From: Egibacter rhizosphaerae
Lineage (GTDB): Bacteria > Actinomycetota > Nitriliruptoria > Euzebyales > Egibacteraceae
Direction: 5' to 3'
Assembly (NCBI RefSeq): GCF_004322855.1
Contig: NZ_CP036402.1
Coordinates: 2,914,001-2,978,000 of the forward strand
Length of the DNA stretch: 64,000 nt
In this document: piece after piece, positions 30,134-51,858 of the stretch
Numbering within the stretch: the stretch's first letter is position 1
Layout of the letters: every line of letters begins with the position of its first letter
Translations under genes and position numbers: made by a program
The notes under the pieces: model-generated
Databases searched by the model: none
Seen by the model: the letters and a program-made list of their open reading frames with translations, nothing else
What the model was told of the DNA's origin: nothing

Positions 30134-31014
<881 letters not shown>

Positions 31015-31016
31015 CT

Positions 31017-31252
31017 ACGACTGCGATGATCCTCTTGCTGCCGCTCCGGCGGTCTGACCCTTGCTTACGACTGACCGAGTGTCCTGGCGTTGACTTGTCG
31101 ATCGCGCGGGGCGGCAGCACCGAGATGGCTCACCGGCCGAGCGGGCAGTGACCTCATAGGAGCCTGACCACACCAGGTCCCCTCGCAGTCCTGTCCGCCC
31201 GCCCGACCGGCGAGTGTGACCGTCGACCGTGCGAGCGAGAGGATCAACGGCC
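31017..31252 (+). ncRNA. Candidate IS110 bridge RNA, copy 1
   Basis: The 236-base non-coding leader between the left edge and the transposase start. It contains ATAGGAGC (31156-31163), identical to the last bases before the right core (32348-32355), and TCGCAGTC (31183-31190), the reverse complement of the first bases after the left core (31019-31026). Those are the two matches expected of a donor-binding loop. Further upstream, GCGTTGA (31087-31093) is the reverse complement of the target just right of the core, and CGACTG (31068-31073) resembles the target to its left (CGACAG). Bridge RNAs with this layout are established for IS110-family elements (IS621); the assignment here is by inference and the RNA ends are not known. 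Confidence 0.6.
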
Positions 31253-32332
31253 ATGACCAGCATCGCGCTTGAGCGCTCCGATGTCATCGTCGGAGTCGAC
31301 ACCCACAAGGACCAGCACGTGGCCGTGACCCTCGACGGGCTCGGCGGACGACTCGAGCAACGCTGCGTCCCAGCCACCAACGACGGCTACGCCGAGCTGC
31401 TGGCCTGGGCCGATGCTCAGGGACGCGTGGTCGCCTTCGGCGTCGAGGGCACCGGCAGCTACGGCATCGGGCTCGCGCGGTTCTTGCGCCGCCACGCTCG
31501 CTGTGTGATCGAGGTCAGCCGTCCCCCGCGCAAGGACCAGCGGCGCGCCGCGGGCAAGAGCGACCCCGTCGACGCCGAGCACGCCGCCCGCCAAGTGCTG
31601 GCCGGCACGGCCACGGTCGCGCCCAAGGCCAGCGACGGCGACATCGAGACACTGCGACTGCTCAAGGTCGCCCGCGATACCGCCGTCAAGGCGCAGAGCC
31701 AGACCATGGTCACGCTCAAGGCGACCCTGGTGACCGCCAGCGACGACCTGCGCGCCGAACTCGAGGCGCTGTCGAACTTCAAGCTGGTCACCGCCTGCGC
31801 CGCGTTCGACTCCGACGACGAGCTCGCCTGCCCCGACACCGCGATGCGCCACGTGCTCGGCGTGCTCGCGCGCCGCTGGCTCGCCCTTCACGCCGAGGCC
31901 AAGACGCTGGCGCGCCAGCTCACCCAGCGCACCCAGGCCGCAGCACCCCAGCTGCTCGACGCCTTCGGCGTCGGCCCCGACATCGCTGCCGAACTGCTCA
32001 TCGCCGTCGGCGACAACGGCGACCGCATCCGCTCCGAAGCCGCGTTCGCCAAGCTCTGCGGCGTCTGCCCCATCCCCGCCTCATCGGGCAAGACCACCCG
32101 CCACCGGCTCAACCGTGGCGGCAACCGACAAGCGAACTCCGCGCTGTTCCGCGCCGTCGTCGTGCGCATGCGCTGGCACGAACCCACGCGCACCTACGTC
32201 GCGCGCCGCACCGCCGAAGGCAAGTCCAAGCGCGAGATCATCCGCTGCCTCAAGCGCTACCTCGCCCGCGAACTCTACCACCTGCTCCCACCCACCCAGA
32301 CCACCGACGAACGGCTTCACTTGGCCGCATAG
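31253..32332 (+). CDS. IS110-family transposase (DEDD), copy 1
   Basis: A 359-residue recombinase with an N-terminal RuvC-like DEDD domain (VIVGVDTHKDQH with the first Asp; FGVEGTGSYG with Glu; GKSDPVDAEHAAR with the two late Asp) and a C-terminal Tnp2 domain containing GVGPDIAAELLIAVGD, AFAKLCGVCPIPASSGKTTRHRLNRGGNRQANSAL in overlapping stretches, and the conserved Ser region (ASSGK). The ATG at 31253 is preceded by AGAGG. It appears intact and differs from copy 2 in only a few residues (for example Cys instead of Arg in the HARCVIE region). Confidence 0.9.
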   Translation: MTSIALERSDVIVGVDTHKDQHVAVTLDGLGGRLEQRCVPATNDGYAELLAWADAQGRVVAFGVEGTGSYGIGLARFLRRHARCVIEVSRPPRKDQRRAAGKSDPVDAEHAARQVLAGTATVAPKASDGDIETLRLLKVARDTAVKAQSQTMVTLKATLVTASDDLRAELEALSNFKLVTACAAFDSDDELACPDTAMRHVLGVLARRWLALHAEAKTLARQLTQRTQAAAPQLLDAFGVGPDIAAELLIAVGDNGDRIRSEAAFAKLCGVCPIPASSGKTTRHRLNRGGNRQANSALFRAVVVRMRWHEPTRTYVARRTAEGKSKREIIRCLKRYLARELYHLLPPTQTTDERLHLAA

Positions 32333-32356
32333 ACGCCCTTGACATCTATAGGAGCT

Positions 32357-32583
32357 TCAACGCGCTCATCGAGTCCGCGATCGGGCTGCACAAGACCGAG
32401 CTCATCGGCCGTCACGGCCCCTGGCCCGCCGCCCCCGACGTCGAACTCGCCACGCTGGAGTACATCAACTGGTTCAACCACAAACGCATCCACACCGCCA
32501 TCGGCGACCGACCCCCCGCCGAACACGAAGCCGCCCACTGCAACGCGCACAACGACCTGAATCACACCCCCGCAATCCAATAA
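32357..32583 (+). pseudogene. IS3 orfB (b), 3' part, copy 1
   Basis: The C-terminal 75 codons of the OrfB split by IS110: NALIESAIGLHKTELIG, then LEYINWFNHKRIHTAIGD with the last catalytic region, ending HTPAIQ. In frame with the 5' part if IS110 is removed. Confidence 0.85.
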
Positions 32584-32614: not shown

Positions 32615-33512
32615 CCCACAGTCGCAACACTTCTCGGATCTCGGTCACCGATACCTCCCGGCACGCCATGCGCCCTCCCACCGCTCGACAGCGACGTAGG
32701 ACGCGAACTGAACCGCTCAGGCGACCGAAACCCCCGCAACCACCCCCGGTCCCATAACTGGCGACGGGGTGGTCCCATCCTCGTGGCGAAACCCCCTCAC
32801 AGGTGGTCCCATGCTCGTGGCGGACGACAGCGACCGACGATTTCGCCTTCCGCCCAGTTGTACGGCGTCGGCACCCCGAACTGACTGATTTCGCGGCTCA
32901 ATAGCCCCGCCTACGCGTACCCCTGCCAACGCTTCGCCGACGCCCTCACGAACGCCAACGCATGACTCGGGGCCACCGTGGATCGCTACTCCTTCGATGT
33001 AGAGCTCTCTCATCTCCTTCTCCATGCCGGTTTATCCCGGCGCTCACAACCACCGGCGCCGACACACCGCACTGGACATGCGCAGCCCCGCCCGCTACGA
33101 ACACGAGGAGGTGCACGCCGAACCCACCCTGGCACTGTTCACCCAACCCTGAACGTGTCCACGGGAGCGGGCAAGGTTCAGACCCGCTGGTGTGCTACCA
33201 CCCGACGTCGTGGTATCGACAGCACCCAGCAGACCCGCCGCCCCAAGCTGCTGGGGGCCCTCGGAGGCGCCGCCCGCACCGACCGGGTCGTCCTCCACGA
33301 CCACCGCGGTTTGGTAACGCGCCACAGCGCCACCACCGCCGGGGCGACCCGCTACACCACCGCGTCCTATGCCAAACGACGCAACCTGATCCGCCACATC
33401 ACCAACATGTAGTGGTTCCATCCCCACAATCACCTTGCGCCAAGGGGACTACCCCCTAAACTAAATCATGCGCCCTAAAGGACCCATAATTGCCGGGCGA
33501 ACGGGGCACCAT
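32615..33512. other. Gene-poor stretch with IS-end-like repeats
   Basis: No convincing gene in 898 bp. Two near-identical 21-bp repeats, GGTGGTCCCATCCTCGTGG (32768 on) and GGTGGTCCCATGCTCGTGG (32802 on), resemble the repeated ends of IS21-type elements. Short open frames at 32962-33459 show no recognisable domain and look like decayed transposon sequence. Confidence 0.4.
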
Positions 33513-41651: not shown

Positions 41652-42005
41652 CCCAGCACACCTCGCTGGCGTTCACCGACGCGCTCGTCGACGCTGGCAT
41701 CGCCGGATCCATCGGCAGCGTCGGCGACGCCCTCGACAACGCGCTGATGGAATCCGCGATCGGGCTGTACAAGACCGAGTGCGTCCGCGCCGACTCGCCG
41801 TTCCGCCGCGGGCCACTGCGCACCCTGGCCGACGTCGAGCTGATCACCGCCGAGTACGTCCACTGGTTCAACCACCAGCGCCTCATGCACCGCCTCGGCC
41901 GCATCCCGCCGGCTGAAGCCGAGGCCCGCTACGATGCCGAGCACGTGACCGACCAGCAGGCCGGTTCACAGACACCCGAGGGTGCATGAAACCCGGGACG
42001 CTTCA
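41652..42005 (+). pseudogene. IS3 orfB C-terminal fragment (c)
   Basis: Encodes GSVGDALDNALMESAIGLYK, then AEYVHWFNHQRLMHRLGRIPP, the last third of an IS3 OrfB with its catalytic Glu region. It starts right after the IS30 right end and finishes with an IS3-like terminus (GGGACGCTTCA). Only this part of the element remains. Confidence 0.78.
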
Positions 42006-49279: not shown

Positions 49280-49310
49280 TGAAACCCCCCGGATTTTGTA
49301 GAGGGCGTGG

Positions 49311-49537
49311 TTATTGGATTGCGGGGGTGTGATTCAGGTCGTTGTGCGCGTTGCAGTGGGCGGCTTCGTGTTCGGCGGGGGGTCGGTCGCCGATGGCGGT
49401 GTGGATGCGTTTGTGGTTGAACCAGTTGATGTACTCCAGCGTGGCGAGTTCGACGTCGAGGGCGGCGGGCCAGGGGCCGTGACGGCCGATGAGCTCGGTC
49501 TTGTACAGCCCGATCGCGGACTCGATGAGCGCGTTGA
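49311..49537 (-). pseudogene. IS3 orfB (b), 3' part, copy 2
   Basis: C-terminal 75 codons of OrfB, identical in layout to 32357-32583 with one or two base differences. Separated from the 5' part by IS110. Confidence 0.85.
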
Positions 49538-49561
49538 AGCTCCTATAGATGTCAAGGGCGT

Positions 49562-50641
49562 CTATGCGGCCAAGTGAAGCCGTTCGTCGGTGGTCTGGGT
49601 GGGTGGGAGCAGGTGGTAGAGCTCGCGGGCGAGGTAGCGCTTGAGGCAGCGGATGATCTCGCGCTTGGACTTGCCTTCGGCGGTGCGGCGCGCGACGTAG
49701 GTGCGCGTGGGTTCGTGCCAGCGCATGCGCACGACGACGGCGCGGAACAGCGCGGAGTTCGCTTGTCGGTTGCCGCCACGGTTGAGCCGGTGGCGGGTGG
49801 TCTTGCCCGATGAGGCGGGGATGGGGCAGACGCCGCAGAGCTTGGCGAACGCGGCTTCGGAGCGGATGCGGTCGCCGTTGTCGCCGACGGCGATGAGCAG
49901 TTCGGCAGCGATGTCGGGGCCGACGCCGAAGGCGTCGAGCAGCTGGGGTGCTGCGGCCTGGGTGCGCTGGGTGAGCTGGCGCGCCAGCGTCTTGGCCTCG
50001 GCGTGAAGGGCGAGCCAGCGGCGCGCGAGCACGCCGAGCACGTGGCGCATCGCGGTGTCGGGGCAGGCGAGCTCGTCGTCGGAGTCGAACGCGGCGCAGG
50101 CGGTGACCAGCTTGAAGTTCGACAGCGCCTCGAGTTCGGCGCGCAGGTCGTCGCTGGCGGTCACCAGGGTCGCCTTGAGCGTGACCATGGTCTGGCTCTG
50201 CGCCTTGACGGCGGTATCGCGGGCGACCTTGAGCAGTCGCAGTGTCTCGATGTCGCCGTCGCTGGCCTTGGGCGCGACCGTGGCCGTGCCGGCCAGCACT
50301 TGGCGGGCGGCGTGCTCGGCGTCGACGGGGTCGCTCTTGCCCGCGGCGCGCCGCTGGTCCTTGCGCGGGGGACGGCTGACCTCGATCACGCGGCGAGCGT
50401 GGCGGCGCAAGAACCGCGCGAGCCCGATGCCGTAGCTGCCGGTGCCCTCGACGCCGAAGGCGACCACGCGTCCCTGAGCATCGGCCCAGGCCAGCAGCTC
50501 GGCGTAGCCGTCGTTGGTGGCTGGGACGCAGCGTTGCTCGAGTCGTCCGCCGAGCCCGTCGAGGGTCACGGCCACGTGCTGGTCCTTGTGGGTGTCGACT
50601 CCGACGATGACATCGGAGCGCTCAAGCGCGATGCTGGTCAT
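49562..50641 (-). CDS. IS110-family transposase (DEDD), copy 2
   Basis: A 359-residue recombinase with the same DEDD motifs as copy 1 (VGVDTHKDQH, VEGTGSYG, GKSDPVDAEHAAR) and the conserved Ser region ASSGKTTRH. It keeps Arg in HARRVIE where copy 1 has Cys. Intact; could act in trans on both copies. Confidence 0.9.
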   Translation of the reverse strand: MTSIALERSDVIVGVDTHKDQHVAVTLDGLGGRLEQRCVPATNDGYAELLAWADAQGRVVAFGVEGTGSYGIGLARFLRRHARRVIEVSRPPRKDQRRAAGKSDPVDAEHAARQVLAGTATVAPKASDGDIETLRLLKVARDTAVKAQSQTMVTLKATLVTASDDLRAELEALSNFKLVTACAAFDSDDELACPDTAMRHVLGVLARRWLALHAEAKTLARQLTQRTQAAAPQLLDAFGVGPDIAAELLIAVGDNGDRIRSEAAFAKLCGVCPIPASSGKTTRHRLNRGGNRQANSALFRAVVVRMRWHEPTRTYVARRTAEGKSKREIIRCLKRYLARELYHLLPPTQTTDERLHLAA

Positions 50642-50877
50642 GGCCGTTGATCCTCTCGCTCGCACGGTCGACGGTCACACTCGCCGGTCGGGCGGGCGGA
50701 CAGGACTGCGAGGGGACCTGGTGTGGTCAGGCTCCTATGAGGTCACTGCCCGCTCGGCCGGTGAGCCATCTCGGTGCTGCCGCCCCGCGCGATCGACAAG
50801 TCAACGCCAGGACACTCGGTCAGTCGTAAGCAAGGGTCAGACCGCCGGAGCGGCAGCAAGAGGATCATCGCAGTCGT
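50642..50877 (-). ncRNA. Candidate IS110 bridge RNA, copy 2
   Basis: Mirror copy of the leader described at 31017-31252, with the same donor-matching octamers and the target-matching heptamer as far as can be read. No differences in the guide segments were noticed. Confidence 0.55.
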
Positions 50878-50879
50878 AG

Positions 50880-51556
50880 CTGTCGCCGACCGAGCCCATT
50901 GAGGCGGTGATGCGTTCGAGGTCGAGACGGTCGGCGTAGCGCACGCTGGTGTATTGACAGCCCCTATCGGAGTGGTGGATGAGCCCGTCGAGGGCGCCGC
51001 CGCGGCGGTGCAGCGCCTGCTCGAGCGCGGCCAGCGGCAGGTCGGCGGCCAGGCTGGTGCCCACTGCCCAGCCCACGATCCCGCGGGTGTACACGTCGGT
51101 GATCAGCGCGGCGTAGCAGAATCCGCCGCGCTCGAGCGGCACGTAGGTCAGATCCGCGCACCACACCTGATCGGGGCGCGCGGCGGTGAACTCGCGGTCG
51201 ACCAGGTCAGGCAGCGTCTGCGCGGCGGCACGGTCGGGGCTGGTGGTCGTGGGCGCCGTGTTGCCGCGACGCACTCCTTGCAGGCCCATGGCGCGCATGA
51301 GCCGCTCGACGGTGCAGCGCGCCACGGCGATGCCCTCGCGGCCCAGCTCGATCCACACCTTGCGGGCGCCGTACACCTGGAAGTTGGCGTCGTAGACCCG
51401 CTGGATCTGCTCGCGTAGGTACTCGTCGCGCAGCGCCCGATCCGACGGCGGGCGGCGCTTGTAGGCGTAGTAGGTCGACGGGGCGATCGGCAACTGCGCG
51501 CAGATCGGCTCGACCCCGAGCTCGACCTTGTGATCGTCGATGAAGGCAACCATCAC
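50880..51556 (-). pseudogene. IS3 orfB (b), 5' part, copy 2
   Basis: Uninterrupted frame for the first 226 codons of OrfB ([62 protein letters not shown]) until the IS110 core. Unlike copy 1 it has no frameshift, so its only lesion is the IS110 insertion. Confidence 0.87.
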
Positions 51557-51858
51557 CGGCGTGGGCGGTCGAGCTCCGCCGACGCAAAATACGCCGACGC
51601 TTTGCGAAGGATCTCGTTCGCGCGTCGCAGCTCGGCGTTCTCCGCGCGCAGCCGCTTGTTCTCCTCATGCTCAGCGCTGCTGGTGCCCGCGCGCTCGCCG
51701 TCGTCGATCTCGGCCTGCCGGGTCCAGTTACGCAACGTCTCAGGGTTGATGTCCAACTGATCGGCGACGCGCTTGATCGCGCCGCGCTCGTCGATGTCGC
51801 GGACCATACGCACAGCCCGCGCCTTCAGTTCCTCGGGGTACTTACGTGGTGCAGCCAT
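51553..51858 (-). CDS. IS3-family OrfA (b), complete
   Basis: A 101-residue helix-turn-helix subunit: MAAPRKYPEELKARAVRMVR, AIKRVADQLDINPETLRNW and a C-terminal coiled coil ([19 protein letters not shown]). It is intact and overlaps the start of orfB. The ATG has GGAGAGTGG upstream. Without an intact OrfB in cis it cannot move this copy. Confidence 0.85.
   Translation of the reverse strand: MAAPRKYPEELKARAVRMVRDIDERGAIKRVADQLDINPETLRNWTRQAEIDDGERAGTSSAEHEENKRLRAENAELRRANEILRKASAYFASAELDRPRR

What the first reader, a model, noticed from the sequence alone, without database searches (positions are those of the whole stretch)
31017..31252. IS110 leader carries guide-like matches to its own ends and to its insertion site
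Removing the IS110 unit at a CT core restores the IS3 orfB frame (GDS then FNALIES), so the boundaries are fixed by reading frame. The leader then shows ATAGGAGC (31156) equal to the 8 bases ending at the right core, TCGCAGTC (31183) complementary to bases just inside the left core, and GCGTTGA (31087) complementary to the target right of the core. These are in the order expected for target-binding loop then donor-binding loop of an IS110 bridge RNA. A left-target match (CGACTG versus CGACAG) is weaker.
Basis: partly seen in the sequence, partly recalled or inferred. Interest (0 to 1): 0.75.

Follow-up and report, generated by a model that had tools for sequence, protein, structure and literature searches.

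The report
RNA-guided element homing into IS3 genes
This is a small mobile element of the IS110 family whose upstream leader carries short RNA guides for its own ends and for its landing site; its relatives in two bacterial phyla sit at the same codons of another mobile element's (IS3) transposase gene, so it is a known kind of system with an unusually clear natural record of RNA-guided targeting.

Summary
The three matches reported are exact, and they are guides of an IS110-group bridge RNA (seekRNA). The proposed boundaries are wrong. The element is 31022-32358 (1337 bp): joining its true flanks restores GSVGDSYDNALIESAIG, and intact IS3 elements read TACGA(C/T)|AACGC there. With the right boundary the 'weak' left-target guide is strong: GCTTACGAC (31063-31071) against flank AGCTACGAC. 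Across 43 elements, guides read by a fixed rule match each element's own flanks far better than permuted flanks (left 296/387 vs 168 +/- 9; right 133/165 vs 69 +/- 7; 0 of 50,000 permutations each), also in the 25 elements outside the IS3 YDN site. The target-binding loop is supported by covariation; the donor loop less so. In the element's clade 20 of 22 members sit in the same YDN codons of diverse IS3 orfB genes; L014 is a natural retargeting. The rule also recovers the published target of ISEc21, an IS110 element aimed at other IS3 transposase codons, so the concept has precedent. RNA expression and activity could not be tested. Verdict: real, a new member of a known kind, with a notable clade-wide preference for IS3 transposase codons.

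The parts
31022..32358 (+). IS110-group element, copy 1 (1337 bp)
   Evidence: Joined flanks restore the IS3 orfB frame and agree with intact IS3 elements; second copy of identical extent with 3 mismatches
31022..31252 (+). left end with the bridge RNA leader
31041..31058 (+). 5' arm of the target-binding-loop stem (3' arm 31097-31114; inner hairpin 31073-31075 with 31081-31083)
   Evidence: Covariation in 18 leaders: score 0.532 vs 0.222 shuffled, 0 of 500 as high; coordinates read off alignment A1
31063..31071 (+). left target guide (LTG) GCTTACGAC, matches flank AGCTACGAC 31013-31021
31087..31093 (+). right target guide (RTG) GCGTTGA, complementary to TCAACGC 32357-32363
31141..31146 (+). 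5' arm of the likely donor-binding-loop outer stem GCGGGC (3' arm 31197-31202 GCCCGC)
   Evidence: Moderate support: 112 pairs vs 87.7 for shuffled arms (maximum 102) and 102.1 for swapped arms (25 of 1000 as high)
31156..31163 (+). left donor guide (LDG) ATAGGAGC, equal to the right end at 32348-32355
31183..31190 (+). right donor guide (RDG) TCGCAGTC, complementary to the left junction GACTGCGA 31019-31026
   Evidence: conserved in alignment A1
31253..32332 (+). IS110 recombinase gene (359 aa)
   Evidence: DEDD_Tnp_IS110 and Transposase_20; matches IS621 and ISCro4 chains
32333..32358 (+). right end, with TTGACA at 32339-32344 and ATAGGAGCTTC at the edge
   Evidence: TTGAC-type box 14 bp from the right edge in 29 of 34 elements; across a circle junction it would lie 17 bp from GATGAT (31025-31030)
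30304..31021 (+). target gene: 5' part of IS3 orfB, ending GSVGDSYD; frameshifted near 30583-30589
   Evidence: tblastn with two intact IS3 OrfB proteins; rve domain
32359..32559 (+). target gene: 3' part of IS3 orfB, beginning NALIESAIG
   Evidence: tblastn
49536..50872 (-). second copy of the IS110 element, in the same site of a second IS3 copy (shared 2481-bp block 49280-51759)

Best explanation
The leader encodes a bridge RNA (seekRNA) of the IS110 group. Its first loop pairs with the IS3 target: the left guide with the bottom strand of TACGAC, the right guide with the top strand of AACGC. Its second loop pairs with the element's own joined ends: ATAGGAGC at the right end, TGCGA at the left end. 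The DEDD recombinase joins a circular form of the element to the target between the D and N codons of the conserved Y-D-N just before the catalytic E of IS3 transposases. Shown here by sequence: boundaries, guides, co-variation of guides and flanks across the family, covariation of the target loop, the clade's shared target. Inferred from published work on IS621 and ISEc21: transcription of the leader, binding to the recombinase, the steps of strand exchange, and a promoter at the circle junction.
For: Guide words at the stated positions, rare in shuffles. Own-flank matches against 50,000 permutations: LTG 296/387 vs 167.7 +/- 8.9, RTG 133/165 vs 69.4 +/- 6.9, none as high; in the 25 elements outside the IS3 YDN site 181/225 vs 87.3 +/- 7.6 and 60/85 (17 elements) vs 23.1 +/- 4.8, none as high. 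Covariation of the target loop. In-frame rejoining and empty sites. Natural retargeting: L014 and L015 are near neighbours on the tree, with RTG GGATTGA vs GCGTTGA and right flanks AATCCG vs AATGCA. L060 sits in a W-D-N variant; LTG and flank both end CTGGGAT. L043: its RTG predicts AACCC to the right of TCCAACGAC, and intact relatives of that IS3-family gene read GACAACCC. The same rule applied to ISEc21 gives its published target. Domains and homology to IS621.
Against: No RNA data. The donor-loop stem has only moderate support. Within the IS3 YDN group the own-flank advantage is small because all flanks are alike (LTG 115 vs 104.1 +/- 4.2, 416 of 50,000 permutations as high; RTG not distinguishable). 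Left junctions were curated by hand with the leader in view. Three exact TACGACAACGC sites in ordinary genes of this genome are unoccupied, so an 11-bp match alone does not make an insertion likely.
Confidence: 0.93

Rival explanations
1. The leader is an ordinary untranslated region and the matches are chance or compositional.
For: The sequence is GC-rich and each match is only 6-9 bases.
Against: Four words in the expected order, each rare in shuffles; own-flank matching across 43 elements with 0 of 50,000 permutations as high, also outside the IS3 site.
Confidence: 0.01
2. The recombinase protein, not RNA, recognises the IS3 site; the leader words are vestiges or binding sites copied from the target.
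For: No RNA was observed here; the clade shares both protein lineage and target.
Against: L014 and L015/L019 have closely related recombinases but different guides and targets that change together; the words lie in a covarying RNA stem-loop; ISEc21 and IS621 were shown experimentally to use the RNA (PMC11187229, PMC11208160).
Confidence: 0.03
3. The IS3-site copies share one ancient insertion inherited with the IS3 elements, so the shared target says nothing about guidance.
For: The two window copies are one duplicated IS3::IS110 unit.
Against: The host IS3 proteins are diverse (36-81% identity to the two query OrfBs, motifs GDSYDNALIES, GDCYDNAVTES, GNCWDNAPMES, RSACYDNALAES), and nearly identical IS110s (L057/L108; L054/L104/L055) lie in clearly different IS3s.
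Confidence: 0.03

Closest known systems
ISEc21 (IS110 family, E. coli), seekRNA demonstrated; Siddiquee et al. 2024, PMC11187229
   Same: IS110-type element with an upstream non-coding region, guides for both target strands, target inside IS3-family transposase genes at catalytic-domain codons; the same guide-reading rule recovers its target; its left flank also ends in GAC and its right edge in GTC
   Different: 44% protein identity and a separate branch; its target is the codons around the second D (HSDQG), the window clade's is the YDN codons just before the E
IS621 (IS110 family, E. coli), bridge RNA and structures; Durrant et al. and Hiraizumi et al. 2024, PMC11208160 and PMC11208158
   Same: Leader RNA in the left end, target loop before donor loop, LTG and LDG equal to top-strand left halves, RTG and RDG complementary to right halves
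   Different: IS621 targets REP elements and has a CT core at both ends; here the dinucleotide before the cut is mostly AC on the target side and TC on the element side. Sequence similarity is weak (phmmer E 4e-07)
IS4321/IS5075 (IS1111 group), which target the ends of Tn21-family transposons (cited in PMC11187229)
   Same: IS110/IS1111-type elements that home into another mobile element
   Different: IS1111 group, RNA downstream of the gene, target is a transposon terminal inverted repeat and not a transposase gene (from the cited titles and abstract; not examined here)

Membership tests
IS110 family (IS110 group) | DEDD_Tnp_IS110 and Transposase_20 domains in one recombinase | tested here: met
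   both above Pfam's cut-offs; IS621 and ISCro4 chains matched
IS110 family (IS110 group) | Non-coding region of substantial length upstream of the gene (left end), short right end | tested here: met
   231 bases before the ATG, 26 after the stop codon
IS110 family (IS110 group) | Leader RNA with two internal loops | tested here: met
   Target loop: strong covariation. Donor loop: outer stem with moderate support, inner hairpin in the consensus fold
IS110 family (IS110 group) | Target-loop guides match both halves of the insertion site | tested here: met
IS110 family (IS110 group) | Donor-loop guides match the element's own two ends | tested here: met
   LDG equals 32348-32355, RDG complements 31019-31026
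IS110 family (IS110 group) | Promoter formed at the circle junction | tested here: inconclusive
   TTGACA, 17 bp, GATGAT in the window; -35 box conserved, -10 weak and variable in relatives; no circle or transcript observed
IS110 family (IS110 group) | RNA bound to the recombinase and required for transposition | not testable with these tools
   Needs an experiment
IS621-type CT core | Same CT dinucleotide at target and donor | tested here: not met
   Left flank ends AC, right edge ends TC in the window; similar in relatives
ISEc21 subgroup | Recombinase groups with ISEc21 and the target is the HSDQG codons | tested here: not met
   ISEc21 and two relatives form a 100% branch apart from the window's clade; the window's target is YDN

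The most novel reading that the evidence does not exclude
A whole clade of bridge-RNA elements in Actinomycetota and Alphaproteobacteria is specialised on one conserved protein motif of a rival mobile element, the Y-D-N codons before the catalytic Glu of IS3 transposases. Its guides follow changes of that motif (TACGAC, TATGAC, TGGGAT; right guide GGGTTGA for the SNDNP version). An IS110 outside the clade (L099) and the ISEc21 branch reached IS3 catalytic codons separately. IS3 transposase genes would then be a recurrent RNA-guided homing target, perhaps because the site is conserved, multicopy and harmless to the host cell. These elements may also work without a shared core dinucleotide.
Probability: 0.5. 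Interest if true: 0.62.

Novelty: new member of a known kind. Interest (0 to 1): 0.5.

Why it matters
The loci are a natural experiment on RNA-guided target choice: relatives with changed guides sit in correspondingly changed sites. They show a clade-wide preference for one conserved codon block of IS3 transposases, parallel to but distinct from ISEc21, which suggests that RNA-guided elements repeatedly use conserved transposase motifs as homing sites. The different dinucleotide on the target and element sides (AC against TC) is a simple point to test against the shared CT core of IS621.

Tried and rejected
Also rejected: my own first idea of a CT core at 31021-31022 and 32355-32356, which would give GDSYDFNALIES, one residue too many. 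The Rfam search found no family for the leader (only a group II intron and an IS3 frameshift pseudoknot nearby). Locating left junctions automatically by donor-guide complementarity misplaced several, so junctions were curated by hand. A first IS3 classification used the short OrfA by mistake and gave no hits; it was redone with OrfB. RNAalifold paired LDG with bases near RDG; I treat this as the fold of RNA without DNA, in competition with the outer stem, but did not settle it. A first donor-stem count used a wrong anchor in three sequences and was redone. Literature searches found ISEc21 as the one precedent for IS3 codons; supplements and ISfinder were not available, so an already named relative with the YDN target may exist.

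Full report
What was checked. The three matches in the finding are exact and at the stated places (positions re-found). In 20,000 dinucleotide shuffles of the leader, ATAGGAGC occurs in 0.075%, TCGCAGTC in 0.48%, GCGTTGA in 2.1% and TACGACTG in 0.25%.

Boundaries. The gene is an IS110 recombinase (DEDD_Tnp_IS110 and Transposase_20) inserted in an IS3 orfB (rve domain). Intact IS3 elements from Iamia and Azospirillum (ISAli4) read TCCTACGACAACGCC and TCCTACGATAACGCG at this point, GDSYDNALAE in both. Cutting the window after 31021 and resuming at 32359 gives TASMGSVGDSYDNALIESAIGLHKTEL. The element is thus 31022-32358, 1337 bp. Its second copy, 49536-50872 on the minus strand, differs at 3 positions and lies in the same IS3 site within a shared 2481-bp block, so it is most simply a duplication of the IS3::IS110 unit and not a second independent insertion.

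Guides. With these edges the layout is: LTG GCTTACGAC 31063-31071 (flank AGCTACGAC); RTG GCGTTGA 31087-31093 (right flank AACGC, preceded by the element's TC); LDG ATAGGAGC 31156-31163 (right end ATAGGAGCTTC); RDG TCGCAGTC 31183-31190 (left junction GAC|TGCGA). The order and sense are those described for IS621: LTG and LDG pair with bottom strands, RTG and RDG with top strands, target loop before donor loop (PMC11208160 and PMC11208158).

Family test. Related loci came from genome contigs, genomes of the phylum and plasmids. Left junctions were placed by complementarity to the donor guide, by hand where the automatic search failed. LTG and RTG were read by a rule that does not look at the flanks: 12 or 13 bases after a TGNC word, and the 7 bases before GA-NNN-G. 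Own-flank matches over 43 elements: LTG 296 of 387 against 167.7 +/- 8.9 under permutation of elements; RTG (33 elements, 5 bases) 133 of 165 against 69.4 +/- 6.9; 0 of 50,000 permutations as high in either. In the 25 elements outside the IS3 YDN site: LTG 181 of 225 against 87.3 +/- 7.6; RTG (17 elements) 60 of 85 against 23.1 +/- 4.8; again none. Within the 18 YDN elements the flanks are so alike that the test has little power (LTG 416 of 50,000 as high; RTG not distinguishable).

Single cases that are hard to explain otherwise. L014 and L015 are close relatives; L015 is in an IS3 YDN site with RTG GCGTTGA, L014 is elsewhere with RTG GGATTGA and right flank AATCCG. L060 is in an IS3 whose motif is W-D-N, and its LTG ends CTGGGAT as does its flank. 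L043 has LTG TCTAACGAC and flank TCCAACGAC in an IS3-family gene with the motif SND; its RTG predicts AACCC, and intact relatives of that gene read AACGACAACCC and AATGACAACCC. The partial copy L003 in the window's own genome has LTG and flank both TCCAACGAC, in a site without IS3 similarity.

Positive control. Siddiquee et al. (PMC11187229) showed that ISEc21 uses a seekRNA and targets codons around the second D of IS3 transposases. The same rule applied to an annotated ISEc21 (L096) gives LTG CACAGCGAT against flank CATAGCGAC, and RTG reverse complement CAGGGCA against CAGGGAA; the joined flanks read FHSDQGSQYTG. A Marinobacter relative matches 8 of 9 and 7 of 7. For a Neorhizobium relative the rule chose a different anchor and the match is poor (3+1 of 9; 4 of 7), so the rule is not infallible.

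Structure. In 18 aligned leaders the target loop is a 17-pair stem with an inner 3-pair hairpin between LTG and RTG. 91.3% of cells pair; the covariation score is 0.532 against 0.222 in shuffles (0 of 500 as high) and at most 0.201 in slid controls. The donor loop has an outer stem in most relatives, but its support is moderate: 112 pairs against 87.7 for shuffled arms (maximum 102 in 1000) and 102.1 for arms swapped between relatives (25 of 1000 as high).

Core. In all but one element (L060, T) the left flank ends in C, mostly AC; the right edges read as element sequence end in TC (the search required NTC or NAC there). RTG carries GA, which pairs with TC, and RDG carries GT, which pairs with AC. 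RTG is therefore complementary to the right junction as found, and RDG to the left junction, which is the pairing described for IS621 after top-strand exchange (PMC11208158). No shared CT is present. Whether this means a mismatched dinucleotide core or a one-base core cannot be told from sequence alone.

Promoter. The right end carries TTGACA 14 bp from its edge; a TTGAC-type box lies at that distance in 29 of 34 elements. Across a circle junction in the window it would be 17 bp from GATGAT. This fits the junction promoter reported for IS621, but the -10 boxes are weak and spacing varies among relatives.

Evolution. On a tree of 47 recombinases, 20 of 22 members of the clade holding the window element (SH-aLRT 99) are in IS3 YDN codons; one further YDN element (L099) lies outside; ISEc21 and two relatives form another branch with the HSDQG target. 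The plasmid loci were found mostly with a query that contained IS3, so the overall fraction is biased. In the genome-contig set, found with the recombinase alone, the loci at 59% identity or more are in IS3-family transposase genes in seven of eight cases (L011, L012, L013, L015, L019, L021, L023; not L014), and none of the five at 47-55% (L016, L017, L018, L020, L022) showed an IS3 flank (L019 and L021 judged from the right flank only, L018, L020 and L022 not on both sides).

Conclusion. The element is a new member of a known kind, with a clade-wide choice of IS3 transposase codons as its most interesting feature. Transcription, protein binding and activity are inferred from IS621 and ISEc21.

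Noticed in passing
window 41726-41743: A partial IS3 orfB carries the same type of site (GCCCTCGAC|AACGCG, GDALDNALMES) unoccupied, in the same window as the two occupied copies.
   Followed up: partly
window 32805-33010, minus strand: Strong Rfam match to a group II intron (RF02005, 123.7 bits) shortly downstream of the IS3; no reverse transcriptase was looked for.
   Followed up: no
window 30298-30414: Rfam ALIL pseudoknot (RF01497, 93.6 bits), a frameshift signal in the host IS3.
   Followed up: no
window 30304-31021 versus 50873-51613: The IS3 orfB of copy 1 is frameshifted near 30583-30589 whereas copy 2 is open across the same stretch; the shared block begins at 30134, so copy 1 lacks the IS3 part upstream that copy 2 has.
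   Followed up: partly
own genome, L112-L114 (G000:C1:1013491, 2654864, 3032605): Three exact TACGACAACGC sites in genes without IS3 similarity are unoccupied.
   Followed up: partly
L033, L035, L039, L067, L068, L105: Relatives outside IS3 have left ends beginning TGCCACG or AGTGA instead of TGCGA, and long left-guide matches (L039: CACAGCTTGACTG, 13 bases).
   Followed up: partly
L057, L108: A second IS110 gene lies next to the IS110 element in these plasmids.
   Followed up: no
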